Below, piece by piece: positions 32,351 to 45,051 of a stretch of DNA of 64,000 bases. Location: NCBI GenBank assembly GCA_900111695.1, contig FOHD01000009.1, positions 21,415-85,414 on the forward strand. The letters are read 5' to 3'. A program made the translations under genes and the position numbers. The stretch comes from Olsenella sp. KH3B4 (GTDB lineage Bacteria > Actinomycetota > Coriobacteriia > Coriobacteriales > Atopobiaceae). Below the pieces are notes generated by a model. The model ran no database searches. It was not told the DNA's origin and was given only the letters and a program-made list of their open reading frames with translations. Position 1 is the first letter of the stretch, and every line of letters begins with the position of its first letter.

Positions 32351-34077
32351 TCACCAATGCCGGACGGCCAAATCGCGGCTGTTTACAGTTACGCCGGGCC
32401 CTGGCCGCGAGAGCACCTCAAGCTCTCCTCCGCCAGGGTCCGGCGCTCGCCGCCCGCGCTCCTCGTCGAGCGAACGCAGCACCTGGCCCTCGTTGAGTGA
32501 GTCGAGGTTGCTCGTGGGCTCGTCCAGGAGCAGGAACGGTGCGTCGTGGAGAAACGCGCGGGCCAGCCCCAGGCGCTGCCGCTCGCCCGAGGAGAGCGTC
32601 CCACCAAGCTCGCCCACCATGATGTCGTAGCCCTCGGGCAGGCTCTCGATGAAGTCGTGTATCGATGCCTTGCGGCCCTGGTCAACGTCCCAGAAGCGTA
32701 TGAGCAGACGCGCCAGGGTCGACTTGCCAGATCCGCTGCGGCCGGAGATGCCCACGATGCGTCCCGCGGGGATGCGCACGGAGACGTCCGAGAGGACCTT
32801 CTCGGCCCCGTACGAGAAGTCCACGTGCTCGGCGGAGGCGTCCGAGAAGGTCACGACGACGCCGTTCTCGACCTCATCCGCCTGGGGTTTCTCGTCCAGG
32901 ATCTCCAGCACGCGCGCACCGGAGGCAAGCGTGCCCTGAAGCGTTGCACCCAGGTTGGCAAGCGCCGCGAACGGGCCAAAGCTCGAGAGCACAAAGACCG
33001 TTGCCAGCACGGTGGCCTCGGGCGTTGCGTCGCCCCCAGACACAAGCTGCGCTCCAAGCGCGAGCTCGGCAATAGTTGCGAGAAGGATCACGGCGCTCAC
33101 GGCAGAGGATCCGCGGGCACCTGCCTGGCGCACCTCCCGTTCTGTCTCCACCAGCTCGCGTGTGCGCGTCAAGCCCGTCAAGAAGCCCACGACGCCACAG
33201 GCTACCGAGACAACCATGACGCCTGCCAGGGGCTTCACAAAGCCCAGCATCCGCCACATGATGCGCGCCGCGTCAACCACGTTTGCCAGGCGGTGAGAGA
33301 TCACGAGTACCGCGCGCTCGCGCGAGAGCTCGCGGACGGCCGCCATGACCTGCTCCTCGCTCTCGGCGTCGACGTTGCTCGTTGCCTCGTCAAAGACGTA
33401 GGCCGGAGTGTCGTGGAGAAGCGCCCGCGCAAGCGCCAGACGCTGACGCTGGCCGTCAGAGAGGTTTGCCGCGTCCTGCTCGATTGCCATGTCCAGGCCA
33501 CCGCGCTCGTGCACAACGCCGTCAAGGCGAGCCGTCTTGAGCGCCGCCCACAGCTGGTCATCCGTTGCCTCGGGCCGTGCCATAAGAAGGTTCTCGCGCA
33601 CGGTGCCGGAGAACACGTGAGCATCTGCGGCGACCATGGTTACGTGGCGCGAGAGAGCTGCCGGGTCCACTTGGTCCACGCTTGTCTCGCCCACCAGTAC
33701 GTCTCGAGCTGCTCGCAGCCCTCGACGGAAAGCTGCACGACCTCGGCGGTGGAGACGTCCTGCGCGTACCCGGTGCCAAGGCGTAGGAGCTTCTCGTATA
33801 TTCGACGACGTAGCGCGCCCTTCACGTCCTGTGACGCGACGAAGGACTCGCGGGCAGAGAGCCGCGTGGACGCCAGGCGTGCGACGAGGGCCGCGGCCAG
33901 GGCGAACGCGGCCTCTGGGATGCTGGGCGCGGTGCCGAGAAGGAGCGCGCCAACGACGCGGCAGATCTCCCAGCTGAGAAGCACGTTGCCCACGAGGCCG
34001 AGCCACTGCCAGCCCACGGTAGCGAGCACGTGTCGCATTGCCCCTGGTACGAGTGTCAGGAGCCTCTTGTCCATCAT
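32351..34077 (-). pseudogene. Decayed tandem ABC exporter pair (CydDC-like half-transporters) with multiple deletions
   Basis: Remnants of two consecutive permease-ATPase genes are compressed into 1.7 kb, where an intact pair needs about 3.4 kb. From ATG 34077: about 125 residues of the first membrane domain, broken near 33697 with a frame change. Then the second half of ATPase 1 (QVDPAALSRHVTMV, LSDGQRQRLALARALLHD, VFDEATSNVDAESE, VISHRLANVV). Then membrane domain 2 (MWRMLGFVKPLAGVM) with a large internal loss. Then ATPase 2 with Walker A GRSGSGKSTL but no Q-loop (RFWDVDQG joined to RKASIHDFIE), signature LSSGERQRLGLARAF, Walker B LLLDEPTSNLD, and a truncated end. ATPase 1 has no Walker A, so no functional product is expected. 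Confidence 0.85.
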
Positions 34078-34341
34078 AGTGTCCCTCCTCCTGCGGACGG
34101 TTGCCCGCGGTTGGCGTTGGGCACGGCGGTTCGCGGTGCGGCAGCGGTGCGCGGTGCGGCGGCTGCCAAAGCGTAATTAGCAGCGTGTAAGAATAGACTA
34201 ACTTTATGGCGAGGTGGGGGAGACGCAGGTAATTCGCGTGGGAGGCAGTTTTGCGCGCCGGCCAGCGCTTTGGCGCATTACCGCCCGCCCAGTTGCCGCC
34301 GCAATTCGAAGTTTCGGAAAAAACCGAACGTTTAAGACGGG

Positions 34342-34446
34342 CTAACCGTTTGGAATCCGCGGCATGTCCGGGGATGCCGCGCGCCCTCGCAGTTTAAGGC
34401 ACCCTAACCGTTCGGAAAAATCCTAACCGTTCGGAATCCGCGGCAT
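34342..34446. repeat. Direct-repeat cluster CTAACCGTTYGGAATCCGCGGCAT
   Basis: Two 24-bp copies that differ at one base (34342-34365 and 34423-34446) and a shorter 14-bp copy (34404-34417), with a TTCGG/CCGAA inverted pair just upstream (34313-34328). The 510-bp region 34078-34588 has no gene. The repeats lie about 140-250 bp before a small-protein gene and may be regulator sites or a decaying mobile fragment. Confidence 0.6.
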
Positions 34447-34588
34447 TCTCCCAATGACGTCTGCAATACGTGCGCGAGCCTCCCGGTATCCAATCCTGAA
34501 TCCCTAATTATTGTCGCGTCCGTCGGGTATATTCGGTCCAATCCAAAGCAACGGCTTTGGTACGTTGGTCCCAGGTCAGGAGGCCGCT

Positions 34589-34783
34589 ATGGCAAGCTAC
34601 ATGCATGATGAGCTGGATGACGCACTTGAGCAGTACCGTAGCGGAGAGCTTAGCTTCGAGGAATTCAAGCGCATGTGTAACGAGGAGGACCGTGAGCAAG
34701 AAGAGGAGAACCGCCGCAGGGCAGCCAAGAAACGCGGCGGCTGGCAGCCTTTTATCGGCATCACGTTCACCTTCGACCGCTAG
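34589..34783 (+). CDS. Small acidic/basic helical protein, function unknown
   Basis: 64 residues: MASYMHDELDDALEQYRSGELSFEEFKRMCNEEDREQEEENRRRAAKKRGGWQPF. It is predicted to be almost entirely helical, with an acidic first half and an Arg/Lys stretch, ending in a short hydrophobic tail (FIGITFTF). A strong ribosome site (CAGGAGG) precedes ATG 34589, which supports its being real. The EQYRSGELSFEEFKRMC segment resembles short SHOCT-like C-terminal motifs, but alignment would be needed. It is 62 bp upstream of pcp and could be in the same transcript. Confidence 0.6.
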   Translation: MASYMHDELDDALEQYRSGELSFEEFKRMCNEEDREQEEENRRRAAKKRGGWQPFIGITFTFDR

Positions 34784-34845
34784 AGTACTGCCGGGCACCC
34801 GTCTTCTGGGTGAGCGCGACTCTTTGTCCACGGGAGGTGGCACGT

Positions 34846-35460
34846 ATGGAGAAGATCCTGGTCACGGGTTTCGAGCCCTTTGGCGGCGAGCAAACAAACC
34901 CCTCGTGGGAGGTGGCAAATGCGCTGCCCACAGTCATTGCCGGCCGAGCCGTGGTCTGCGAGCGAATCCCCGTGTCGTTTCGTCGCGGGCCGGCTGCCGT
35001 GCTTAACGCAATCCGGCGCGAGAACCCCTCCGTCGTGCTCTGCCTGGGTCAGGCGGGAGGCCGTGCCAAGGTGACGCCTGAGTTCGTGGGCATAAACTAC
35101 GCCGACGCGCGCATTTCCGACAACGACGGCGCGCAACCGCAAGGCATGCGCCTCTCGGCGGGCGCGCCGGATGCGTACTTCTCGACTCTGCCCGTTCGTG
35201 CAATGGCACAGGCAATGATTGATGCTGGCGTCCCAGCTGCAGTCTCGTACTCCGCGGGAACCTACGTTTGCAACGCGGTGCTCTTCTCGGCACTTCATGC
35301 GCTTGCGACGTCCCATTCCGCAGTACGCGCTGGCTTTGTGCACGTGCCCTACTCGCCTGAGCAAGCATGTCAACTGTCCAAGGTGACTCCCAGCCTGCCA
35401 ATTGCGCTTGTGCTGCGAGGAATCGTGAGTGGTCTTGAGTGCGCCTGTGCGTGGGGCTAG
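34846..35460 (+). CDS. pcp: Pyrrolidone-carboxylate peptidase
   Basis: 204 residues. A cysteine peptidase (family C15) that removes N-terminal pyroglutamate from peptides in the cytoplasm. Catalytic residues are all at the expected places: Glu79 in KVTPEFVGIN, Cys142 in SAGTYVCNAVLF and His166 in RAGFVHVPYSPEQ. The N-terminal ILVTGFEPFGGEQTNPSWEV is the family signature. Start ATG 34846 has GGGAGG about 7 nt upstream; the reading from 34810 is unsupported. The next gene (LDH family) starts 72 bp later on the same strand. Confidence 0.95.
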   Translation: MEKILVTGFEPFGGEQTNPSWEVANALPTVIAGRAVVCERIPVSFRRGPAAVLNAIRRENPSVVLCLGQAGGRAKVTPEFVGINYADARISDNDGAQPQGMRLSAGAPDAYFSTLPVRAMAQAMIDAGVPAAVSYSAGTYVCNAVLFSALHALATSHSAVRAGFVHVPYSPEQACQLSKVTPSLPIALVLRGIVSGLECACAWG

Positions 35461-35532
35461 GCTCGTCACGTGGCGCTGGCCCCTGGCATTGCCTGGCAGT
35501 CCAAGCGTCCGCGAGCCAGAAAGGGGAACCAC

Positions 35533-36480
35533 ATGAGCTTCAAGGACACCAAGGTCGTTATCGTGGGCGCCGGCAAGGTCGGCTCGACCACCGCGTTCAG
35601 CATCATTAACCAGGGGCTTTGTGGTGATGTGTGTCTCATCGACGTAAACCACGAGCATGCGGTGGGCGAGGCGCCCGACATGCGCGACTCGGTCTTCTTT
35701 ATGAACCGCAACGTTAACGTGCACGCCGGCGACTACAGCGAATGCTCGGACGCAGACATTGTCATCATCACTGCGGCGGCGCCCATGCCCAAGGACTCCA
35801 ACGACCGACTCGAGATGCTCAAGCCCAGCCTGGGTGTGGTGCGCTCGGTGGTCGAACAGGTCATGGCGTCGGGCTTCGACGGCATCTTCCTGGTTGTCTC
35901 GAACCCCGTCGACGTGATGAGCTACTACACGTGGAAGCTCTCGGGTCTGCCACGCGAGCGCGTCATTGGCTCTGGCACGCTGCTGGACTCGGCACGACTA
36001 TGCCGTGCGCTCTCCGACATGTACGACCTGGCCTCCAACAGCGTCGAGGCCTTTGTTCTCGGCGAGCACGGCGATTCGGAGATTGTCTCGTGGAACAGCG
36101 CAACCATTGGTGGCAAGCGCGTGGACGACGTGCTGCGCGACAATGCCTCGCGCACGCGTGGCGTTACCCCCGACGAGCTGCGCAAGCGCACGGTGAAGGC
36201 CGGATGGGACATCTTCAGCCGCAAGGGAAACACCTGCTACGGTATTGCGTCAAGCACGGCTTCCATTGCCAAGTCGATTCTCTTTGACGAGAACCGCATC
36301 ATGCCGGTCTCGGTCTACCTCGACGGGCAGTACGGCATCCGTGACACGTTCCTCTCGGTGCCTACGATTGTCGACAGTACCGGTGCCAAGGAGATTGTGG
36401 AGATTGACCTTCTCCCGGACGAGCTAGAGGCGCTGAGAAGGTCTGCCGACATGCTTCATGGCCTGGACGAGAAGCTCTAG
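35533..36480 (+). CDS. L-lactate/2-hydroxyacid dehydrogenase (LDH/MDH family)
   Basis: 315 residues, NAD-dependent. Rossmann motif VVIVGAGKVGSTTAF (residues 8-22), NAD acidic residue LIDVNHEHA, SNPVDVMSYY, substrate-binding Arg in GSGTLLDSARL, catalytic His in LGEHGDSEI. The active-site loop reads AAAPMPKDSNDR where typical lactate dehydrogenases have GAPQKPGETR; the specificity Gln is replaced by Met and the loop is a residue longer, suggesting a bulkier 2-keto acid may be preferred (L-2-hydroxyisocaproate-like). GAAAGGGG precedes ATG 35533. Likely role: regenerating NAD in fermentation. Confidence 0.88.
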   Translation: MSFKDTKVVIVGAGKVGSTTAFSIINQGLCGDVCLIDVNHEHAVGEAPDMRDSVFFMNRNVNVHAGDYSECSDADIVIITAAAPMPKDSNDRLEMLKPSLGVVRSVVEQVMASGFDGIFLVVSNPVDVMSYYTWKLSGLPRERVIGSGTLLDSARLCRALSDMYDLASNSVEAFVLGEHGDSEIVSWNSATIGGKRVDDVLRDNASRTRGVTPDELRKRTVKAGWDIFSRKGNTCYGIASSTASIAKSILFDENRIMPVSVYLDGQYGIRDTFLSVPTIVDSTGAKEIVEIDLLPDELEALRRSADMLHGLDEKL

Positions 36481-36503
36481 GCGCTTTGCGGCTTTGATGC
36501 AGA

Positions 36504-36548
36504 GTAGCCCCCGCCGTGGCGCCGGATTGACGCCACGGCGGGGGCTAC
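36504..36548. terminator. Bidirectional terminator hairpin
   Basis: A perfect 18-bp stem: GTAGCCCCCGCCGTGGCG (36504-36521) with its complement at 36531-36548 and a 9-nt loop. Sits between the convergent LDH and ecfT genes. No long U-run, but the stem is very stable. Confidence 0.75.
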
Positions 36549-36632
36549 GTGCGGAGTTGCTGCCAAAAGTGGCCTCGTGGCGCCCCGGCCCGCGACCGGC
36601 CTCGGCGGCTCCGGCCCGCGCCCCGCTCGCCG

Positions 36633-37379
36633 CTACAGCAGCACGCCGGCAACCACCAGCGCGGCGCATGCCACGAGCACCGCTACGTCGCGACCCGCCA
36701 TGGGATAGCGCTTGAAGCTGCTCTCGCGCGTGCGCAGGTAAAAGCCGCGCTGCTCGGCGGCAAGCGCCGTCGCGTCGGTCTTGCCCACCGAGCTCACCAG
36801 CAGCGGCACGCACAGCGGCAGCATGAGCTGCAGCTTACGGATGGGGTTCTTGGTGTCGTACTCAACGCCGCGCGCCGTCTGCGCCTCCATAATCGCGTTC
36901 ATCTCCTGGCTGAACACCGGCACAAAGCGCAGCGCCGTGGTAAACGTGAACGCGTAGCGGTACGGAATGTGCAGTACCTCAACGCAGGCGTTGGCAAGGT
37001 CGTTGAGCTTGGTTACGCTCAGCATGAGAATGAGCGGCAGCGCCACACCCAGAAGGCGCAGGCATGCCTTGCTACCCGTGACCAGGCCGTCCGTGGTCAT
37101 CCACGCAACTACCGGCTCGCCTCCGCGCACAAACGCGGTCTGCAGCAGAAGCATCACCACCGCCAGCGGCACCAGCAGCTTGAGCAGCGAGACCAGCTTG
37201 GACGTGGCGTGCGCATACGCGCCCAGCGCAAAGGTGAGGGCGAGAAGTGCCAGCAGCATGGGGTAGGTGTCGGCCAGAAACATCGCGACGATGATTGCTG
37301 CGGCAATGCCCAGCTTTGTCACCGGGTTCAGCCGATGCAGCAGGGTGTCTCCCGGCACGTAGTCGATCACGTTAACCAC
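36633..37379 (-). CDS. ecfT: ECF transporter transmembrane component EcfT
   Basis: 248 residues. Six to seven hydrophobic segments and the two EcfT coupling motifs that bind the ATPases: MEAQTARGVEYD and LAAEQRGFYLR. N-terminal DYVPGDTLLHRLNPVTKLGIAAAI is the canonical opening of EcfT proteins. It links the substrate-binding S components to the EcfA ATPase in the membrane. GTG 37379 overlaps the stop of the ecfA gene (TAA at 37372-37374) and has GAGGAG upstream inside ecfA, so translation is coupled. Last gene of the Trp-attenuated operon; transcription ends at the 36.5-kb hairpin. Confidence 0.93.
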   Translation of the reverse strand: MVNVIDYVPGDTLLHRLNPVTKLGIAAAIIVAMFLADTYPMLLALLALTFALGAYAHATSKLVSLLKLLVPLAVVMLLLQTAFVRGGEPVVAWMTTDGLVTGSKACLRLLGVALPLILMLSVTKLNDLANACVEVLHIPYRYAFTFTTALRFVPVFSQEMNAIMEAQTARGVEYDTKNPIRKLQLMLPLCVPLLVSSVGKTDATALAAEQRGFYLRTRESSFKRYPMAGRDVAVLVACAALVVAGVLL

Positions 37380-39195
37380 GGCGTACCATCTCCTCGGTGA
37401 GGTCGACGATGCCAGACACCTGGCTGATACCGGCAAACTCGGGTGACAGCTCGCGTGCGAGTGCCTCTGACAGCTCGATGACCTGCGGCGCCTTCACGCT
37501 TGCCTCCCGCATGAGCTCCGCGTTGGAGAACATCTCGAGCGTGCCCCCGCGATCGAGGATGTGCCCGTTTGCCATGACCACGATCCTCTCGGCAAAGTCC
37601 GAGACAACCTCCATGTCGTGGCAGACCATGATTACGGCGCAGCCGCGCTCGGCCATCTCGCTCACCGTGTCCATCACGGTCATGCACTCGCGGTAGTCAA
37701 GGCCGCTTGTGGGCTCGTCGAGAAGGACCACCTCCGGCTCCGTCACCACCACGGAGGCCAGGGCGACCATCTGTCGCTGACCACGCGAGAGCGAGAAGGG
37801 CGCCTCGTCCGCAGGCAGCCCAAAGCGCTCGATCACCGCGCTCGCCCGCGTGCGCGCGTCCTTCTCGTCCACGCCCTGCAACGTGAGGCCAAAGGCGACC
37901 TCTTCAAGCACGGTGTCCTTGCAGAGCTGGTAGTCCGGGTTCTGGAAGAGCGTTGCGCAGTGGGCGGCAATTGCGCTGGTGGGAACCTCGTGCGTGTCGA
38001 GACCCGCCAACCGTACGGTGCCCGAAGCCGGGCGCAGCAGGCCGTTAAGGAGCTTGGTGAGCGTGGTCTTCCCGGCGCCGTTCTGGCCAACGATGCCCAC
38101 GACCTCGCCAGGGAACACCCGCATGTTCAGGTGGTCGACGGAAGCCGTGCCCCCGGGGTAGGCAAAGCTCACGTCCTCGAGGCTCACCACCGGCTGCGCG
38201 CCCTCCGCATGCGGGCGCGGCGCGGCTACGTGCTTGGAGCCGGCGCGGAAGCCCGCCTCGCGCGTGCCCTCCTCGGCGCTCGCCACGTGGCAGCTGGTCT
38301 TGGACGCTGGCTGTATCAATCCGGTAATGAGGGTCTTGGCTTCGGGCACGGTAAGGCACGGCGCACCGCCCGCCACCAGGCCGTCCTTGGCAAGCGAGTT
38401 GTACACGCGCGCCACGCGCGGGCTGTCGACGCCAATGCGCCGCAGCTCGTCGCCGTGCGAGAAGACCTCTCGCGGCGCGCCGTCGAGCACGAGCGACCCC
38501 TTGCTCATCACCAGGATGCGGTCGCAGTACTCCGAAAGCAGCGCCACCTTCTGCTCGATGACCACCACGGTGACGCCCTCCTCGCGCACCTTGCGCAGCG
38601 TGTCAAAGACGAGCTTGGAGGAAGCGGGATCCAGCGCGGCGGTGGGTTCGTCGAGCACCAGGACGCGAGGGCGCATGGCGAGAATGGCGGCGATGGCCAC
38701 CTTCTGCTTCTGGCCGCCCGAGAGCGTGGCTATCTCGCGATCGCGCAGGTTGGAGATGCCCACGGTTTCGAGCGTCTGGGAAATACGCTCCTCAATCTGG
38801 TCGTGGGGCACCCCAAAGTTCTCGAGGCCAAAGAGCATCTCGTCCTCGACCACCGAGGCAACCATCTGGGTGTCGATGTCCTGCAGCACGCTGCCAACTA
38901 TCTGCGAGATGTCGGTGAGCGATACGTCGCAGGTGTCGTGCCCGTCCACCAGCGTGGCGCCGTAAAGGGCGCCGTGGTAGTGGTGGGGGATGGCGCCCGA
39001 CATCACGGAGGCGAGCGTGGACTTGCCGGCGCCCGAGGGGCCAATCACGCCCACGAACTCGCCCTCGCCGATGCTCAGCGACACGTCGCGCAGCGCGGCG
39101 TCTTCGCTGTTCTCGGCGCCGCCCTCGGCGGGCGCGTCGTAAGAGAACGTTACGTGGCTCATCTCGATGATGGACTTATCTTCCCGTGCGGTCAT
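37372..39195 (-). CDS. ecfA: ECF transporter ATPase, fused EcfA-EcfA' (two ABC domains)
   Basis: 607 residues holding both ECF ATPase domains in one chain. Domain 1 (about 12-245): Walker A GPSGAGKSTLA, Q-loop VLQDIDTQM, signature LSGGQKQKVAIAA, Walker B VLVLDEPTAALDP. A linker (about 290-350) follows. Domain 2: Walker A GQNGAGKTTLTK, Q-loop LFQNPDYQL, signature LSRGQRQMVALA (Arg for Gly), Walker B VVLLDEPTSGLDY, H-loop VCHDME. It powers S-component-mediated uptake with EcfT. Start ATG 39195 has AAAGG upstream; longer readings would translate two copies of repeat B. It lies 138 bp downstream of S component 2. Confidence 0.93.
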   Translation of the reverse strand: MTAREDKSIIEMSHVTFSYDAPAEGGAENSEDAALRDVSLSIGEGEFVGVIGPSGAGKSTLASVMSGAIPHHYHGALYGATLVDGHDTCDVSLTDISQIVGSVLQDIDTQMVASVVEDEMLFGLENFGVPHDQIEERISQTLETVGISNLRDREIATLSGGQKQKVAIAAILAMRPRVLVLDEPTAALDPASSKLVFDTLRKVREEGVTVVVIEQKVALLSEYCDRILVMSKGSLVLDGAPREVFSHGDELRRIGVDSPRVARVYNSLAKDGLVAGGAPCLTVPEAKTLITGLIQPASKTSCHVASAEEGTREAGFRAGSKHVAAPRPHAEGAQPVVSLEDVSFAYPGGTASVDHLNMRVFPGEVVGIVGQNGAGKTTLTKLLNGLLRPASGTVRLAGLDTHEVPTSAIAAHCATLFQNPDYQLCKDTVLEEVAFGLTLQGVDEKDARTRASAVIERFGLPADEAPFSLSRGQRQMVALASVVVTEPEVVLLDEPTSGLDYRECMTVMDTVSEMAERGCAVIMVCHDMEVVSDFAERIVVMANGHILDRGGTLEMFSNAELMREASVKAPQVIELSEALARELSPEFAGISQVSGIVDLTEEMVRRG

Positions 39196-39208
39196 AAGAG
39201 CCTTTCGT

Positions 39209-39307
39209 GAGACAAAGGGACAGTCCCTTTGTCTCATGCCAATGTTGGAGTGGAGGCAAGGGTACCCCTGCCCCATACGTGAGACAAAGGGACTGTCCCT
39301 TTGTCTC
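39209..39307. repeat. Repeat B copies 4 and 5 inside the ECF operon
   Basis: Two 27-nt palindromes at 39209-39235 (central A) and 39281-39307 (central T on the + strand) lie between S component 2 and ecfA, separated by 45 bp containing GGTACCCCTGCC. The nearer one ends 14 bp from the ecfA start. In the mRNA they would form two strong hairpins between cistrons. Confidence 0.85.
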
Positions 39308-39333
39308 ACGTGCGGTTCGCTATCCTAGCGGAA

Positions 39334-39891
39334 CTACTTCTTGAGGACCTTCTTGAGGGGGAAGTAGAGCGCCTGCACCACGACGGCGTTGAAGACGGCG
39401 GTGCCCAGAACGAGGGGGATCTTCACAACCACGGTGCCGAGCGCCGCTCCCATGATGAGCGTGCCGGCCACGGCGAAGAGCGCGCCCGAGACGAGCGTGG
39501 TCAGGAACGCGGCGACGAGCGGGGTGACGTTGCGGCCGCCGATCTCGATGGGACGGCGGATGAGGGCGGCCATCACCAGTGCGGCGACGAGCTCGGTTGC
39601 GAAGTTAAGTCCGGGAATCGAGGTGGTGAGCTGGATGACTGCGGCCGAGACCAGGCCAAAGACGGCCGCCTGGCCAAAGCCGGCGTTGGAGAGCAGGATT
39701 GCCAGCGCGTAGGAGGCAATGATGAACTGCGGTTTGATGCCCACGATGGCAAGGGCGTTGCCCACGGTCATGTTGAGGATGAAGCCTGCGGCAAGAAGGA
39801 CGGCGAGAAGGACGAGCGAGGAGACATCGGCCGTGCCGGAGTGCTCGGCGGTGGTAACGGTGCGTGCCTGGCTTGCGTTCTGCTGGGACAT
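39334..39891 (-). CDS. ECF transporter S component 2
   Basis: 185 residues. A polar N-terminal tail (MSQQNASQARTVTTAEHSGTADVSS) precedes five to six membrane helices starting VLLAVLLAAGFILNMTVGNALAIVGIKPQF, with LTTSIPGLNFATELVAALVMAAL and ATLVSGALFAVAGTLIMGAALG-like segments. It aligns along its full length with the S component encoded immediately upstream (shared LVLLAVLLAAGFILN.TVG, AAVIQ.TT, VFNA..VQALY.P). S components bind the solute and topple in the membrane when coupled to EcfT. Two paralogues in one operon may pair or have different ligands. AAAGGAA precedes ATG 39891. Confidence 0.85.
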   Translation of the reverse strand: MSQQNASQARTVTTAEHSGTADVSSLVLLAVLLAAGFILNMTVGNALAIVGIKPQFIIASYALAILLSNAGFGQAAVFGLVSAAVIQLTTSIPGLNFATELVAALVMAALIRRPIEIGGRNVTPLVAAFLTTLVSGALFAVAGTLIMGAALGTVVVKIPLVLGTAVFNAVVVQALYFPLKKVLKK

Positions 39892-39941
39892 GGTGGGTTC
39901 CTTTCGTTTGCGCTGCTTGCGGAGGTGTGGTCGAGGGCGGG

Positions 39942-40514
39942 CTAGTCGTTGACCTTGAGGGCCTTGCACACGGGGATGTAGAGGGCCTGGACGAGAATGG
40001 CGTTGAAGATGCCGGTTGCCAAGACCACGGGGAGCATGGCGGCGGCGAGCTCCTGGGCGGCACCGACCATGGCGATGCGGATGACCATGAAGATGACGCC
40101 GGAGACCACGGTGGTGACGAAGGTGCCGATGGCAGGCACGAACTTCTTGGCGCCGCCGCGCATGCCGGCGCTCACGATGACGGCCATGAGCATGGCGGCC
40201 ACGCCCTCGGCAGCAAAGTCAACAAAGGGGGAGGTGGTGGTGATCTGGATTACGGCCGCGGAGATGAGGCCGATTACCAAGGCCTGCGGGACGTTGGGGC
40301 GAATGACCAGGATGGTGAGGCAGAATGCCGAGATGATGAACTCGGGGCTGATCATGCCGCCGGAGACGCTGGCGATGGCCTTGCCCACGGTGAAGTTGAG
40401 GATGAAGCCTGCTGCGAGCAGGACGGCGAGAAGCACCAGGGCGCGGACGTCGAGCTTGCCGTGATCTTCGGAGGTGACGGTGCGGGCCTGCTGCTTGGTG
40501 GTGTTCTCGGACAT
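39942..40514 (-). CDS. ECF transporter S component 1 (putative tryptophan-related substrate)
   Basis: 190 residues. Hydrophilic start (MSENTTKQQARTVTSEDHGKLDVR) followed by VLLAVLLAAGFILNFTVGKAIASVSGGMISPEFIISAFCLTILV and further helices; paralogous to the next gene. First structural gene after the Trp attenuator (leader peptide 40644-40724, terminator 40581-40616), so expression should rise when charged tRNA-Trp is scarce. This regulation is the only evidence for the substrate: tryptophan or a precursor such as an indole compound. GAAGGGAA lies before ATG 40514. The gap to S component 2 is 50 bp. Confidence 0.85.
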   Translation of the reverse strand: MSENTTKQQARTVTSEDHGKLDVRALVLLAVLLAAGFILNFTVGKAIASVSGGMISPEFIISAFCLTILVIRPNVPQALVIGLISAAVIQITTTSPFVDFAAEGVAAMLMAVIVSAGMRGGAKKFVPAIGTFVTTVVSGVIFMVIRIAMVGAAQELAAAMLPVVLATGIFNAILVQALYIPVCKALKVND

Positions 40515-40580
40515 GGTTTGTTCCCTTCTGCTTGATGACGCTGTGTGTGATTTCGAATAGCTCGTTGGGTGTGCTTGCAC

Positions 40581-40616
40581 AAAAAAGAGGGCCCCGGTCA
40601 AACCGGGAGCCCTCTT
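40581..40616 (-). terminator. Attenuator terminator of the ECF operon
   Basis: On the minus strand AAGAGGGC pairs with GCCCTCTT, and CCCGG with CCGGG around a TTTGA loop, followed by a run of T (40586-40581). It lies 67 bp before the first S-component start and 28 bp after the leader-peptide stop, the position of a class I attenuator terminator. Confidence 0.9.
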
Positions 40617-40643
40617 AGTTCGCGAATATATGGCGCGAGAGAC

Positions 40644-40724
40644 TCACGATCGACCGACCGCTTGCGAATCGCGCCACCACCAGTTCATGGACATACGTGC
40701 GACGTTAGTGGCGATGCGGTTCAT
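40644..40724 (-). CDS. trpL: Tryptophan-rich leader peptide (TrpL-type) of the ECF operon
   Basis: A 26-codon reading frame: MNRIATNVARMSM then NWWWRDSQAVGRS and TGA. GAGAGGAG lies 8 nt before the ATG at 40724. Three successive TGG codons (residues 15-17) match the NWWWR core of actinobacterial trp leader peptides. Attenuation geometry is present. Region 1, TGGCGCGA (40676-40669, at the last Trp codon), pairs with region 2, TCGCGCCA (40638-40631). Region 2 can instead pair through TCGCG and GAGTCTC with CGCGA and GAGGGCTC, which overlap the terminator left arm. Ribosome stalling at Trp codons would thus prevent termination. This is a regulatory peptide, not a functional protein. Confidence 0.9.
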   Translation of the reverse strand: MNRIATNVARMSMNWWWRDSQAVGRS

Positions 40725-40781
40725 CTCTGGCGCTCCTCTCGTGAATCTTGCCGCTTGGGCAGTTTGTGCTTGTTGCGGCAC

Positions 40782-40811
40782 ACTTTACGCCCGTTATGCC
40801 TGCTGTCGCAA
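40782..40811 (-). promoter_or_regulatory. Candidate promoter of the Trp-attenuated ECF operon
   Basis: On the minus strand TTGCGA (40811-40806) and TAAAGT (40787-40782) are separated by 18 bp. Transcription would start near 40775, about 50 nt before the leader-peptide ATG. Confidence 0.5.
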
Positions 40812-40931
40812 CCCCTATTTTTGTTAAGCCTTGGTAACGCGGGGCTGAAGGCCTCGGCGTGACTGGCGTTCCCCACGCCTTGTCCAATTACCGGCCGTTT
40901 TTGGATGCTTTCTTCGAACCCGCCAGTACAG

Positions 40932-41069
40932 ATTGACGGTTGGTGGCAGTTTTCGGAAAAGAATTGATATGTATGGATGCATATAACAATTTTCTGACCT
41001 GCGGTTTAACAAACATTGAACCATTTTGTACTTGGGACACCCCCGAAAAAGCTACCCCCAACCGTCAAT
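40932..41069. repeat. Repeat A copy 1
   Basis: A 138-bp element with terminal inverted repeats: left ATTGACGGTTGGTGGCAGTT (from 40932), right the near-complement CTACCCCCAACCGTCAAT (to 41069). The inner conserved block TCTGACCTGCGGTTTA and TTTTGTACTTGGG recur in copy 2 at 63.2 kb. No coding capacity. It lies between the ECF operon promoter and the crcB riboswitch; the rest of 40862-41169 shows no other feature. Confidence 0.8.
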
Positions 41070-41169
41070 TTGTGCCAGGTGGGTGGTCGGGAAGTCTTGC
41101 GTCTTGAGGAAAAGGGCCTGCTGTGGCCCAGAGAGTCGGATGGGCAGGCATCTGTCGACTGTGCTACGC

Positions 41170-41250
41170 TGCCCGCCAGGGAATGAGGCCTCCCCGGCGG
41201 GCGCGCTCGCCAAACCGCATGGTGCTGATGGCTTCTGCGTTGGGCGGAAT
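41170..41250 (+). ncRNA. Fluoride riboswitch (crcB motif)
   Basis: The conserved core of the fluoride aptamer is readable in order: GGGAATGAGGCC (41179-41190), then CCAAACCGC (about 41210-41218), then GTGCTGATGGCTTCTGC (41223-41239). These correspond to the GAUGAGGCC, AAACUGC and GCUGAUGGCCUCUAC strands of characterised members. Outer GCCCGCC/GGGCGG pairing (41171, 41242) may close the structure. It sits 30 bp before crcB, a fluoride exporter, and lacks a clear terminator, so control may be at translation. Confidence 0.85.
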
Positions 41251-41280
41251 CCCGCTCGTCTCGTTTGGAAGGTCGCGACC

Positions 41281-41661
41281 ATGCCTGCGCTGTTTGATTG
41301 CCTTGCCGTCTGCGCTGGGGGAGCGCTTGGCTCGCTTCTCCGCTACCTCATCTCGCTTGCGCCGTTCAAGAGTGTGGGAGACGCGGGTTTCCCGCTGGCG
41401 ACCCTTCTCACCAACATTGTGGGCGCGTTTGTGATTGGGCTTATCGTTGCCACTGTTGCTGCGGGTCACGAGCTTGACTCGCGGCTCGTCCTCTTTCTCA
41501 AGGTGGGCCTCTGCGGCGGGTTTACGACGTTTTCCACGTTTGCGCTCGAAAGCGTTGGTCTGGTGCAGCGCGGTGAGCCGCTGGTCGCCGTGGCGTACGT
41601 GATGTTGAGCGCCGGCCTGGGCATGGCCGCCGTGCTTCTCGCCCAGCAGGTGGCTGCGTAG
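41281..41661 (+). CDS. crcB: Fluoride channel/exporter CrcB (Fluc)
   Basis: 126 residues with four membrane helices, the standard Fluc size. Signature elements: GGALGSLLRYLIS near the N-terminus, TLLTNIVGAFVIGLI (the conserved Asn of helix 2), and GLCGGFTTFSTFALE, which holds the Phe-box residues that line the fluoride path. Functions as an antiparallel dimer that lets F- leave the cell. Start ATG 41281 follows GGAAGG at about 9 nt. Expression is very likely induced by fluoride through the riboswitch immediately upstream. There is a single crcB gene, so a homodimer is expected. Confidence 0.95.
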   Translation: MPALFDCLAVCAGGALGSLLRYLISLAPFKSVGDAGFPLATLLTNIVGAFVIGLIVATVAAGHELDSRLVLFLKVGLCGGFTTFSTFALESVGLVQRGEPLVAVAYVMLSAGLGMAAVLLAQQVAA

Positions 41662-41716
41662 GCGCAAGCTGAGTGAGCTTGCCCCTCTCTGGGGGGGTCT
41701 CATTGGCCTCGGCTTG

Positions 41717-41801
41717 CGCAGATTATCGCTATTTCCTAAAACCGATAGGCAACAACTGGGCAAACGTAAGCGATGATTAAGAAAGAGCGATATTCTCTGC
41801 A
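41717..41801. repeat. Repeat C copy 3
   Basis: Ends CGCAGATTATCGCTATTTCC and GAAAGAGCGATATTCTCTGC are inverted relative to one another; the core CAACTGGGCAAAC and GATTAAG match copy 2. Located 55 bp after crcB. Confidence 0.8.
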
Positions 41802-41911
41802 GGGAACGCAGCTGGGGGAGCAGCCGAGGGCCGCCGGGGAGCCGCCCAGGGAGACGAGGGAGCGAGGCCATGCATGGGCAGGCCGCGCGTTTCAACCACA
41901 TTGGAGGAGCT

Positions 41912-42436
41912 ATGAACGAGGTCGAGAAATGCATTCGTGAACGTCGCAGCACCCCAAGGTTCAAGCAGGTTCCCGTTGCGCGCGAGCTGGTCGAGCGCGT
42001 CATCGAGGCGGGTTTGTGGGCGCCCTCGGGCATGGGCAAGCAGTCTCCCATCATCGTTGCCGTGACCAACCGCAAGCTTCGCGACGAGCTGGCCGAGGAG
42101 AACCGCCGTATCATGGGTGCCCCAGAGGGCATGGATCCGTTCTATGGCGCGCCCGTTGTCCTTGTGGTTCTCGCCAGCGCAGCAATGCCCACGCGCGTGT
42201 ACGACGGCTCGGCGACCATCGAGAACATGCTGCTTGCCGCGCAGTCGCTTGGCCTGGGTGGCCACTGGATCCACCGTGCCAAGGAGGAGTTCGAGGAGCC
42301 TCGCTACAAGGAGCTGCTGGCAAGTCTGGGCGTGGAGGGCGACTACGAGGGCATCGGCCACGTGGTGATTGGCTACCCTGACGCCGAGAAGGCCCAGCCT
42401 GCGCGCAAGGACGGTCGCGTCTTCTGGGCGGAGTAG
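41912..42436 (+). CDS. Nitroreductase-family protein
   Basis: 174 residues. Opening CIRERRSTPRFKQVPVARELVERVIEAGLWAPSGMGKQSPIIV is the FMN-binding signature (Arg-Arg-Ser and the APSGxxxQ loop). Later IENMLLAAQSLGLGGHWIHRAKEEF and GHVVIGYPDAEKAQPARKDGRVFW complete the short nitroreductase fold. Such flavoenzymes reduce nitroaromatics, quinones or flavins with NAD(P)H as cytoplasmic dimers; the true substrate is unknown. TTGGAGGAG sits just ahead of ATG 41912. The next gene starts 55 bp downstream on the same strand, possibly an operon. Confidence 0.9.
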   Translation: MNEVEKCIRERRSTPRFKQVPVARELVERVIEAGLWAPSGMGKQSPIIVAVTNRKLRDELAEENRRIMGAPEGMDPFYGAPVVLVVLASAAMPTRVYDGSATIENMLLAAQSLGLGGHWIHRAKEEFEEPRYKELLASLGVEGDYEGIGHVVIGYPDAEKAQPARKDGRVFWAE

Positions 42437-42491
42437 TACCCGCGATTGCCTCAGCCATTGCCCCCGGCAGCACGGCCAGAAAGGACAAACC

Positions 42492-43214
42492 ATGCGCGTC
42501 ACGCACATCTACCACAGCGGCTTTGCCGTCGAGCTTACCGCCTGCACGCTGCTCTTTGACTGGTACACGGGCGAGCTTCCCAAGCTTCGGCGAGACCTGC
42601 CGCTTATCGTGTTTGTCTCGCACGAGCACCACGACCACTACGGGCAGTGCATCTGGCCGCTGCGCGAGCAGTTCGCAGACGTGCGCTACGTGCTGGACAA
42701 GGACGTCGCGGCAGACGCGCCGGCGGATGCGCGCGTGATCTCTGTCGAGCCGCACGCAACCTACGAGCTGCAGCTACCTGTCGCTCCTGGGGCAGCCCCC
42801 GGCACGCTCTCCATCCAGACCCTCGAGTCCAACGACGAGGGCGTGGCATTTCTCGTCCACGCATGCGGTACCTCGGTCTACTTCTCGGGTGATCTCAACT
42901 CTTGGCAGTGGGCGCGCCCGGCCGAACAGAACGAGGCATCCGAGAAGTTCTTCCGCACGGAGCTCTCGCGCATTGCCAACAGCGCCGTTGACCTGGCGTT
43001 TGTTCCACTCGACCCACGCCTTCAGGATCCAGCGGCAGGAGTTGCTGCTTTCATGGACGTTGTGGGTACCAACGCGCTCTTCCCCATGCACTACTGGGAC
43101 AGGGCCGAGGAGGCTCGCGCGCTCATGGCGGACCCCCGTCTGGCGCCCTACGCAGGCATTACGCACTTCGAGGACGTCTGCGATCTGCCAGATGCCGCCC
43201 CAGGCCAGGCCTAG
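42492..43214 (+). CDS. Metallo-beta-lactamase-fold hydrolase (UlaG/RNase Z-like)
   Basis: 240 residues. The dinuclear metal motif is HEHHDHYG (about residues 39-46, HxHxDH), with further ligands Asp in VYFSGDLN and His in LFPMHYWDRA. The N-terminal VTHIYHSGFAVELTACTLLFDWYTG is the usual beginning of the lactonase-type/YycJ-like branch (often annotated as metal-dependent hydrolase UPF0173-like). No export signal. AAAGGAC precedes ATG 42492. The last four bases overlap the convergent esterase gene. Confidence 0.87.
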   Translation: MRVTHIYHSGFAVELTACTLLFDWYTGELPKLRRDLPLIVFVSHEHHDHYGQCIWPLREQFADVRYVLDKDVAADAPADARVISVEPHATYELQLPVAPGAAPGTLSIQTLESNDEGVAFLVHACGTSVYFSGDLNSWQWARPAEQNEASEKFFRTELSRIANSAVDLAFVPLDPRLQDPAAGVAAFMDVVGTNALFPMHYWDRAEEARALMADPRLAPYAGITHFEDVCDLPDAAPGQA

Positions 43215-43957
43215 CGCGTCTCGCCTGCGGGTCCCGTCTCTGCATCGCTATCCAGCAGCCAGCGAATGCCGCGGGCGGTGCGCAGGTCCTCATCGGTGAA
43301 GTGGTTGCCGGGATTGAGCTCAAACCGCGTTGCGGTGCCAAACTGCTCGAAGCGCTCCGCAACCCGGCGTGTGTCCTCGAGCACGCTCCGCATCGTGCGG
43401 TTGCGCGTGCGCGGCTCGGCGTCCCCAAGCGAGAAGTACGCGCGCCGCACGGTGGAATTTGGCCTGTTACCTGCGACGTATTTGACAAAGTCCGGATACC
43501 ACAGCGAGCCCGACACACTGGCAACGCATTCGAAAAGGCTGCACCGCGTTGCCGCCCACGCGGTAAAGAGCCCCGCCAGCGAGTAGCCCGCAAGCGCCGA
43601 GAAGGCCGGCGCCATGCCGTGCTGGGCGAGAAGCGCCTCGGCCTCGGGCATTATTGCGCGGCCGAGAAGCTCGAGCTGTGATTCCGCGAAGCCTTCGTAG
43701 GGCCTGGCGCCGCGAAACGTGGGCGGGGCTGGCCACGGAGTGAGGTCGTTATCCCAGCTCCTAGGCTCTATCGCCACGAGTGCCATGGACTGCCTGGTCC
43801 CCTCGCCAAGGCGCCGCCACACGTCTGCCCCGTCACCCTCAAAGACGTGAAGGTAGACCACGGGAACGCTGGCCAGGGGAGCGTTGCCACCTGCAGCCGG
43901 CTCTATCGCACGGAGGGTGGCCTTCTCGCCCTCGACGCTAAAGCTCTGCTCGACCAT
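43211..43957 (-). CDS. Alpha/beta-hydrolase esterase (IroE/Fes-like fold)
   Basis: 248 residues. Esterase D-type alpha/beta hydrolase: the nucleophile elbow is GYSLAG (Ser in AGYSLAGLFTAWAA), with Asp in SLGDAEPRTRNRT and His in LNPGNHFTDEDLRTARGIRWLL forming the triad. Oxyanion-region VVYLHVFEGDGADVWRRL. Cytoplasmic homologues hydrolyse siderophore or small acyl esters; no siderophore genes are nearby, so the role is open. ATG 43957 has GGAGGAG upstream; a reading from 43975 is possible but has no ribosome site. It follows azlD by 27 bp on the same strand. Confidence 0.82.
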   Translation of the reverse strand: MVEQSFSVEGEKATLRAIEPAAGGNAPLASVPVVYLHVFEGDGADVWRRLGEGTRQSMALVAIEPRSWDNDLTPWPAPPTFRGARPYEGFAESQLELLGRAIMPEAEALLAQHGMAPAFSALAGYSLAGLFTAWAATRCSLFECVASVSGSLWYPDFVKYVAGNRPNSTVRRAYFSLGDAEPRTRNRTMRSVLEDTRRVAERFEQFGTATRFELNPGNHFTDEDLRTARGIRWLLDSDAETGPAGETR

Positions 43958-43984
43958 GCTTTCTCCTCCAGCCACCTGGCACCG

Positions 43985-44308
43985 CTAGACAAGGGAGAGC
44001 AGGACGTACGCTGCGACTCCCGACACGCAGCACCATAGCATCGAGCGGGTTCGCCATGCCACGAGCACCACCACACCCGCCGCCACCAGCGGCATGAGCC
44101 CCGCCCACAGACCGGCGTCGAACATGGTGGGGGAGAGCAGGTCGTTTGCAACCAGGGCCGCAAAGGCGGCCGGCGGGATGTAGCCCAGCGCCTCCACCAC
44201 GCGCGGCGAGAGGGGTCGCCCGCGCAGGGCGACTACGGGTGCCACGCGGCACACGAGGATGAACGCGAACGAGAAGAGCCACAGCACGAGGAACTGAGAG
44301 GTGCTCAT
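43985..44308 (-). CDS. azlD: Branched-chain amino acid export subunit AzlD
   Basis: 107 residues with three to four membrane helices (FLVLWLFSFAFILVCRVAPVVAL, AFAALVANDLLS, AGLMPLVAAGVVVLVAWRT, MLWCCVSGVAAYVLLSLV). The RVAPVVALRGRPLSP...VEALGYIPPAAFAALVANDLL pattern defines AzlD. It works with AzlC, encoded with a 4-bp overlap just upstream, to export branched-chain amino acids or analogues such as 4-azaleucine. The ilv biosynthetic operon lies 2 kb away on the same strand. Confidence 0.92.
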   Translation of the reverse strand: MSTSQFLVLWLFSFAFILVCRVAPVVALRGRPLSPRVVEALGYIPPAAFAALVANDLLSPTMFDAGLWAGLMPLVAAGVVVLVAWRTRSMLWCCVSGVAAYVLLSLV

Positions 44309-45051
44309 CGCGCGTCACCTCCTGCGGCGGGCGCGGCCGGGGCGCTGCCGTTACCGTTACGTCGGCGCGGCGCGAGTCCCGACGCCATCCCCGCGCCTAC
44401 GCCCACAAGCGCCGCAAGCGGCACGGCCACACCTGCCAACCCGCTCCACTTGCAGAGCGCAACGGTGAGCGCCGCCCCTAGCGCAGCGCATGCGGTGCCG
44501 CGCGTGTGGGGCTGCGAGTAGAGCAGGTAGATGAAGAGCGAGGTCATCGCAAAGCCTGCGATGGCGGTGGGGATGTCGACCACGGAGCCAAGCGCGGCGC
44601 CGGCCGCGCACGAAAGAGCCCAGGTGAGCTGCACGCACACGTTGAGGCCAAGGGCGTGGCCGGCAGTCCACGTCTCGCCCGAGGCAAGGCGCGAGAGCGT
44701 GATGCCGTACGCCTCTTCCGTGTAGCAGCACGCAATGGCCAGCGACTGCCTGCGCCCAAAGCGTTTGAGGTGCGGCGCGAGGGATGCCGAGTAGAGCGCG
44801 AAGCGCGTGGAGATGGCCGCCACCGAAGCGATGATCGAGCCCAGCGGGGCTCCGGCCAGCCACAGGTTGCTCATCATGAACTGTCCGCCGCCAGAGAGGT
44901 ACGAGAACCCAAGGACAAAGTTCATGAGCGGCGTCATGCCGGCCTTGGCGGCAAGCACGCCACAGGGAAGGCCCACGGCCACGTAGGAGAGCATGACCGG
45001 CCACGCGGCTGTCAAGACCTCACGGGCGGCTGGCTTTGCTCCCTCTTGCAC
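44305..45051 (-). CDS. azlC: Branched-chain amino acid permease AzlC
   Basis: 248 residues, large subunit of the AzlCD exporter. Characteristic YVAVGLPCGVLAAKAGMTPLMNFVLGFSYLSGGGQFMMSNLWLAGAPLGSIIASVAAISTRFALYSASLAPHL near the N-terminus, followed by four to five more helices. Start is GTG at 45051 with AGGAG 5 nt upstream. It overlaps azlD by 4 bp. A Gly/Ala/Pro-rich tail (about 225-248) is not conserved in the family. Likely role: relief of branched-chain amino acid excess. Confidence 0.92.
   Translation of the reverse strand: MQEGAKPAAREVLTAAWPVMLSYVAVGLPCGVLAAKAGMTPLMNFVLGFSYLSGGGQFMMSNLWLAGAPLGSIIASVAAISTRFALYSASLAPHLKRFGRRQSLAIACCYTEEAYGITLSRLASGETWTAGHALGLNVCVQLTWALSCAAGAALGSVVDIPTAIAGFAMTSLFIYLLYSQPHTRGTACAALGAALTVALCKWSGLAGVAVPLAALVGVGAGMASGLAPRRRNGNGSAPAAPAAGGDAR

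What the first reader, a model, noticed from the sequence alone, without database searches (positions are those of the whole stretch)
36633..40811. Tryptophan attenuator controlling an ECF transporter with two S components
Sequence: on the minus strand a 26-codon leader with NWWWR and GAGAGGAG ribosome site (40644-40724), a region 1:2 hairpin TGGCGCGA/TCGCGCCA that includes the last Trp codon, an alternative region 2:3 pairing that occupies the terminator left arm, and an intrinsic terminator (40581-40616). Two paralogous ECF S proteins, a fused EcfA pair and EcfT follow. Knowledge: NWWWR leaders with this geometry regulate trp biosynthesis genes in actinobacteria. Inference: here the mechanism is wired to import, so the system is likely a tryptophan (or indole-precursor) ECF transporter; the two S subunits may form a pair or share the module.
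Basis: partly seen in the sequence, partly recalled or inferred. Interest (0 to 1): 0.9.

Follow-up and report, generated by a model that had tools for sequence, protein, structure and literature searches.

The report
Tryptophan attenuator driving tryptophan import
In a gut-type bacterium that seems unable to make tryptophan, an RNA switch that would sense tryptophan shortage through a stalled ribosome sits in front of a likely tryptophan importer instead of the usual synthesis genes, and relatives carry the same switch on other tryptophan uptake and salvage genes.

Summary
A 26-codon leader with three Trp codons, a 1:2 hairpin and a strong terminator precede S1-S2-EcfAA'-EcfT. The WWW tract and terminator are widely conserved in relatives. 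Both S proteins model as ECF S components and match Pfam TrpP, S2 above and S1 below the cut-off. The genome lacks TrpC, TrpB and TrpB2, so Trp itself is the likely substrate. In Eggerthellaceae the homologous transporter mostly carries a T-box with UGG in the specifier context. Attenuators of this type also precede NSS transporters and TrpB2; none was found in 18 TrpC regions. Beyond the finding: the leader end (CGGTCGA) is complementary to the terminator loop and 3' arm, and several divergent copies keep this complementarity with other letters, which suggests an antiterminator strand coded at the leader end. Covariation within trpP leaders is weak and an energy test was negative. Nothing was tested at the bench. 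Verdict: new variant of a known kind.

The parts
40733..40740 (-). ribosome binding site GAGAGGAG of the leader
   Evidence: read in sequence
40644..40724 (-). leader ORF MNRIATNVARMSMNWWWRDSQAVGRS*; Trp codons at 40682-40674
   Evidence: translation; WWW conserved
40669..40676 (-). region 1 (TGGCGCGA, includes third Trp codon)
   Evidence: 1:2 stem 76.7% of cells paired over 60 sequences, 5 of 8 pairs with both-side changes
40650..40657 (-). segment S (TCGGTCGA, last codons of leader), proposed antiterminator strand
   Evidence: complementary to terminator loop/3' arm; 91.3% of cells paired vs at most 52.2% when slid; GGT codon in 100 of 103 leaders vs 9 of 95 Gly codons in operon
40631..40638 (-). 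region 2 (TCGCGCCA)
40607..40625 (-). region 3, overlaps terminator 5' arm; pairs with 40645-40634 in the fold that mimics a stalled ribosome
40594..40601 (-). segment T (TTGACCGG), terminator loop and start of 3' arm, partner of S
40581..40616 (-). intrinsic terminator with U run
   Evidence: (103 of 103 distinct leaders)
39942..40514 (-). S1, TrpP-like ECF S component (190 aa), ATG at 40514
39334..39891 (-). S2, paralogous TrpP-like S component (185 aa)
37372..39195 (-). fused EcfA-EcfA' ATPase
   Evidence: TIGR04520 and TIGR04521 over cut-off
36633..37376 (-). EcfT
   Evidence: PF02361 93.6 bits

Best explanation
This is a ribosome-mediated transcription attenuator that couples tRNA-Trp charging to expression of a dedicated tryptophan ECF importer with two TrpP-type S components, in a likely tryptophan auxotroph. 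Proposed working: with enough Trp the ribosome runs to the leader stop codon, covers segment S and region 2, and the terminator stops transcription before the importer genes. When Trp is short the ribosome stalls on the WWW codons; region 1 is covered but S and region 2 stay free. S then pairs with the terminator loop and the first bases of its 3' arm as they emerge, and region 2 with region 3 where that complementarity exists, so the terminator cannot form and the importer is made. Shown here: the parts, their conservation, the predicted fold of the S proteins, the lack of three Trp synthesis genes. Inferred: stalling, read-through and Trp transport.
For: WWW leaders, 39 nt from first Trp codon through stop in 71 of 71 with WWW and in most further ones; terminators in 103 of 103 distinct leaders; 1:2 stem covaries. 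S:T core complementarity in 56 of 58 distinct S/T pairs (windows there were anchored on these motifs, so this count is partly built in) and 91.3% of cells on an alignment not anchored so; kept with different letters in divergent leaders, e.g. CGGATTAT/GTAATCCG in L282, GGATTA/TAATCC in L302 and L303; GGT and CGA codons of S far from operon usage; folds that mimic a stalled ribosome show S:T with 2:3 in L003, L147 and L071. TrpP family and S fold; operon S(-S)-AA'-T kept. No TrpC, TrpB, TrpB2 in a 99.99% complete genome; 118 of 127 genomes with a strong attenuator hit lack TrpC. Eggerthellaceae homologues: T-box motif in 27 of 30, Rfam T-box matches in 12 of 12 sources tested and 2 of 2, UGG in the specifier context in 26 of 30 (the search motif contained TGG). 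Attenuators of this type on NSS transporters and TrpB2.
Against: No experiment. Equilibrium folds of the full transcript favour the terminator also in the stalled state in all six loci shown, and S:T does not form at the shorter length in L066 and L143, so the model needs co-transcriptional kinetics. Synonymous shuffles of the leader end do not fold worse (median z -0.29; 4 of 60 with at most 10 of 200 shuffles as low). Covariation of S:T within trpP leaders alone is weak: mean helix 7.60 against 7.40 for swapped partners, 65 of 2000 swaps as high; 2 of 8 pairs with both-side changes, 166 of 500 shuffles as high. RNAalifold on 60 sequences finds only the terminator. 6 of 17 divergent rows have S:T p above 0.05, one of them an ECF leader at 0.375. 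G178 and G169 keep the importer without a Trp leader. S1 is below the Pfam TrpP cut-off.
Confidence: 0.85

Rival explanations
1. The leader is a Trp attenuator of the classical E. coli layout only: region 2 pairs with region 3 as antiterminator, and the S:T complementarity has no antiterminator role or acts as a loop-loop contact.
For: 1:2 covaries; a 2:3 pairing appears in the window when the transcript ends at the loop (fold of -16.3 kcal/mol). S also lies in the 1:2 loop, so a loop-loop contact with the terminator loop is possible.
Against: 2:3 was seen only in some of the six folds shown and was not counted over the alignment; the spacer it uses is poorly conserved. S and T are among the best conserved stretches after the Trp codons and stay complementary with other letters in several divergent leaders.
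Confidence: 0.25
2. S2 carries a different but Trp-related substrate (such as another indole compound), so the operon imports two compounds through one module.
For: S1 and S2 are only 49% identical, and S2 lies in its own clade (98/84), in which 17 of 18 rows are the second S gene of an operon.
Against: In G244 an S2-type gene stands apart from S1 with its own WWW leader (L160). Q77, Q90, T135, S138, T167 and N171 are invariant over 42 S1-like, S2-like and T-box-controlled proteins.
Confidence: 0.25
3. The leader senses free Trp through nascent-peptide stalling at the stop codon, like TnaC, not through scarce Trp-tRNA.
For: Near-constant 12-residue distance from the first W to the stop and a conserved G-[RQ] before it in trpP leaders. 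TnaC biology is from a search listing and recall.
Against: Residues between W and stop vary widely and the stop comes earlier in NSS leaders; conservation is at base level (GGT in 100 of 103); tandem Trp codons and a T-box on the homologous operon in Eggerthellaceae point to tRNA charging.
Confidence: 0.04

Closest known systems
trp operon attenuators of Corynebacterium and Streptomyces (PMC1262725, abstract and passages seen)
   Same: Leader with two or three Trp codons, GC-rich terminator with poly-U, actinobacterial hosts
   Different: They precede trp operons (and trpS in some Streptomyces); here an importer, and in relatives NSS transporters and TrpB2. Here the end of the leader is complementary to the terminator loop and 3' arm; I could not see their figure to compare.
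Bacillus subtilis TrpP, ECF S protein (PMC11487621, two passages seen)
   Same: trpP is among six S-protein genes tested; tryptophan is named as an ECF substrate
   Different: Here two TrpP-like paralogues sit with a dedicated EcfAA'T behind a leader peptide; TRAP control of B. subtilis trpP is recalled, not looked up
T-box leader (RF00230)
   Same: Would sense the same signal (tRNA-Trp charging) on the homologous TrpP operon in Eggerthellaceae
   Different: Direct tRNA binding, no leader peptide (recalled)
Corynebacterium glutamicum TrpP (Cg3357; PMC11995493, abstract and passages seen)
   Same: Name only; lies next to the trp operon
   Different: Three-helix SdpI/YhfL family protein; its authors exclude a Trp transporter role

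Membership tests
ribosome-mediated Trp transcription attenuator | short ORF with tandem Trp codons and ribosome site | tested here: met
   conserved
ribosome-mediated Trp transcription attenuator | intrinsic terminator between leader and first gene | tested here: met
ribosome-mediated Trp transcription attenuator | 1:2 hairpin including a Trp codon | tested here: met
   (RNAalifold, did not draw it)
ribosome-mediated Trp transcription attenuator | classical 2:3 antiterminator | tested here: inconclusive
   present in window fold, not counted over the alignment
ribosome-mediated Trp transcription attenuator | Trp-dependent read-through | not testable with these tools
   needs bench work
ECF transporter, dedicated (group I) type | S-component fold | tested here: met
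ECF transporter, dedicated (group I) type | helix 1 AxxxA docking motif | tested here: met
   A30 and A34 of S1 invariant in 42 proteins; in the 25-protein set of S2 the first alanine is at 90% or more, the second invariant; role from one passage of PMC11109136
ECF transporter, dedicated (group I) type | EcfA, EcfA' and EcfT in the same operon | tested here: met
Pfam TrpP (PF17099) | score over curated cut-off 27.2 | tested here: inconclusive
   S2 31.5 over, S1 24.9 under; 31 of 42 S proteins match at E 0.01 or better
Pfam TrpP (PF17099) | tryptophan transport | not testable with these tools
   uptake or binding assay needed
Rfam T-box RF00230 (Eggerthellaceae homologues) | score over gathering 93 bits | tested here: not met
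   56.1-76.9 bits, E 8.2e-10 or better in 14 of 14 loci; T-box-like by the GGTGGCACCG box and UGG specifier context

The most novel reading that the evidence does not exclude
A distinct attenuator architecture of the window's bacterial order: a segment S at the end of the leader (in NSS-type leaders just past the early stop), made of CGG plus the complement of the terminator loop, is the antiterminator strand. S invades the terminator through its loop when the ribosome is held on Trp codons and is hidden under the ribosome at the stop codon, so the contest is for the terminator 3' arm rather than its 5' arm. The element forms a small Trp-starvation regulon (TrpP-ECF, NSS, TrpB2) in mostly auxotrophic bacteria and replaced, or was replaced by, the Trp T-box of Eggerthellaceae.
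Probability: 0.55. Interest if true: 0.65.

Novelty: new variant of a known kind. Interest (0 to 1): 0.58.

Why it matters
It proposes a substrate and a regulator for an importer whose S protein has homologues in 202 of 396 sampled class genomes; 118 of 127 strong attenuator carriers lack TrpC, so it bears on who competes for tryptophan in the gut. It shows what looks like ribosome-mediated attenuation wired to import and salvage, gives a case of exchange between two tRNA-Trp sensors on homologous operons, and offers a testable antiterminator layout.

Tried and rejected
Rfam on 33000-45000: no family at the leader, E up to 1. Synonymous-shuffle energy test for selection on the stalled fold: negative. 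RNAalifold recovers only the terminator. Covariation of S:T within trpP leaders: weak. Divergent leaders, S:T against letter-shuffled S: 26 loci scanned, 17 leader-terminator rows in 16 loci (L313 repeats the place of L250), no row in the other 10 loci; 11 of 17 at p 0.014 or lower, 6 at 0.06-0.375. TrpC regions of 18 genomes: no WWW leader (the start of each trp operon was not annotated, two regions are cut by contig ends, and leaders without TGGTGG would be missed); Rfam at gathering cut-offs on 6 of the 18 found only a TPP switch, but that call also missed T-boxes that score under the cut-off. Attenuator model R1 in 296 genomes drawn over the phylum, some of the window's own order: no hit better than 1.5e-5 outside that order; 7 weak hits were read and had no WWW leader. 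Sigma-70-like promoter in 36500-41200: none. PDB by sequence: no clear relative (best S component E 0.25). Literature searches for this link; no listing or passage that I saw describes it. A 2015 proceedings paper by Korolev et al. on Trp attenuators in Actinobacteria, seen only as a reference in PMC4833913, is not held as far as I looked and may overlap. L073 (partial gene) had no WWW upstream. L281 and L291 did not read in frame as cut and count as misses in the T-box tally. L135 was dropped from the S/T tally because its terminator was mis-delimited. The names Atopobiaceae, Coriobacteriaceae and Eggerthellaceae for the unnamed families f1, f3 and f2 are inferred from contigs shared with named loci.
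Full report
WHAT IS THERE. On the minus strand the leader ORF 40724-40644 encodes MNRIATNVARMSMNWWWRDSQAVGRS* with GAGAGGAG 8 nt upstream. A terminator follows; 40735-40575 folds at -70 kcal/mol against a shuffled mean of -54 (z -4.13), and the 1:2 hairpin is drawn in the shorter unconstrained folds. Then come S1 (ATG 40514), S2, a fused EcfA-EcfA' and EcfT.

CONSERVATION OF THE LEADER. In the 72 loci of the first two searches (some genomes twice), 71 have WWW, each with 39 nt from first Trp codon through stop. Of 66 further loci (some again of the same genomes), 60 have WW/WWW, or WAW in G171; G178 and G169 have none, and four Eggerthellaceae loci have T-box matches instead. A few of these have a shorter tail. 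A terminator was found in 103 of 103 distinct leaders. On a 60-sequence alignment the 1:2 stem has 76.7% of cells paired (slid controls at most 49.9%; 0 of 500 shuffles as high) and 5 of 8 pairs with changes on both sides (50 of 500 shuffles as high).

The end of the leader (S, here TCGGTCGA, 40657-40650) is complementary to the terminator loop and start of its 3' arm (T, TTGACCGG, 40601-40594). The core pairs in 56 of 58 distinct S/T combinations from 102 loci, a count partly built in because the windows were anchored on these motifs. On the MAFFT alignment 91.3% of cells pair, at most 52.2% when slid. Inside trpP leaders it hardly varies, so covariation is weak: mean helix 7.60 against 7.40 for swapped partners, 65 of 2000 swaps as high. 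The codons are not explained by the peptide: Gly is GGT in 100 of 103 leaders (two of the other three are a register effect of an early stop) against 9 of 95 Gly codons in the operon, and CGA fills the next position in 72 of 103 against 2 of 55 Arg codons. Divergent leaders gave a better test: S:T is kept as CGGATTAT/GTAATCCG (L282), GGATTA/TAATCC (L302, L303; L301 similar), GGGTTATC/GGTAATCC (L247, L250) and GGAC/GTCC (L251, p 0.11). In all 17 rows the best helix starts 21-30 nt after the start of the first Trp codon (21-54 was searched); 11 of 17 have p 0.014 or lower, 6 do not, including the ECF leader of L239 at 0.375. A ribosome on the Trp codons should leave S free and one at the stop codon should hide it (footprint of about 14 nt past the A site, recalled). 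In folds that mimic the stalled state with the 3' arm half out, S:T forms with 2:3 in the window, L147 and L071, without 2:3 in L048, and not in L066 and L143; one base further S:T core pairs form in 37 of 60, with no null computed for that number. The complete transcript favours the terminator in all six shown, so any antitermination is kinetic, and total folding energy is not better than synonymous shuffles (median z -0.29).

WHAT IT SENSES AND MOVES. The genome (99.99% complete) has no match to TrpC, TrpB or TrpB2 models, while each model rings in 14 of 14 control genomes (over its cut-off in 14, 13 and 4): a likely Trp auxotroph that cannot use indole by these enzymes. Of 396 class genomes, 127 have a strong attenuator hit (E below 1e-9) and 118 of these lack TrpC; 121 of 130 TrpC carriers lack the hit (Fisher p 1e-15, not corrected for descent). 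Two genus mates, G157 and G301, do have TrpC. In Eggerthellaceae the homologous TrpP operon carries a T-box motif in 27 of 30 loci and Rfam T-box matches in 14 of 14 tested (all under the gathering score, E 8.2e-10 or better), with UGG in a conserved specifier context in 26 of 30 (the search motif itself contained TGG; the two alignments show UGG there independently). One locus, G185 (L282), has a WWW leader instead. Two different tRNA-Trp sensors on homologous operons make tryptophan the likely substrate.

REGULON. The covariance model R1 and follow-up place attenuators of this type before NSS transporters (7 loci, L239-L245; Pfam run on one) and TrpB2 (L247, L250, L251, L301, L302, L303; NCBIfam run on two, the rest by tblastn), besides TrpP-ECF. 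The R1 hits at TrpB2 are weak (5.7e-7 to 1.6e-4); those cases rest on WWW, terminator and S:T. No WWW leader was found in TrpC regions of 18 genomes, nine of which carry the attenuator elsewhere; two of these regions are cut by contig ends. Outside the window's order the best of 296 phylum-wide genomes reached only 1.5e-5.

TWO S COMPONENTS. The S tree (100 of 140 rows after dereplication) gives a clade with S2 (98/84) of 17 second genes and one that stands without S1 (L160 in G244, with its own WWW leader); further first/second pairs lie in another part of the tree. In G118, G291 and G114 an S lies in one open frame with EcfAA'. I read S2 as an alternative Trp S component sharing the module; a second substrate is not excluded.

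KNOWN AND NEW. TrpP as an ECF S protein is in print for B. subtilis (PMC11487621, two passages). Trp attenuators before trp operons are in print for Corynebacterium and Streptomyces (PMC1262725, abstract and passages). I saw no paper that links the two or describes S:T pairing (searches); one cited proceedings paper could not be seen. Hence: new variant of a known kind, with a possible new antiterminator layout.

Noticed in passing
window 41170-41244 (+): Fluoride riboswitch match, 32.8 bits (gathering 34), E 5.6e-06, at the start of an ORF stretch that reads like CrcB (recalled), divergent from the attenuator.
   Followed up: no
window 39205-39311 (-): Two copies of a palindromic repeat (GTGAGACAAAGGGACAGTCCCTTTGTCTCAC type) can form a stem of about 30 pairs between S2 and ecfAA' (z -10); 14 matches on both strands (7 places) in the window, 0.03 expected. 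The miRNA hits lie on this repeat.
   Followed up: partly
L151, L146, L154: S component in one open frame with EcfA-EcfA' (819, 881 and 792 aa), a likely fusion.
   Followed up: partly
L247:141-1634 (-): TrpP-like S fused to a single EcfA, directly after an attenuator-led TrpB2.
   Followed up: partly
L144, L145 (G178, G169): Importer without Trp leader in genomes that have TrpC; a terminator with GTTGACC remains in L144, the one read.
   Followed up: partly
L043: ecfAA' appears split into two frames in this assembly.
   Followed up: no
L134 (G171): Leader with W-A-W instead of W-W-W but the same kind of tail and terminator.
   Followed up: no
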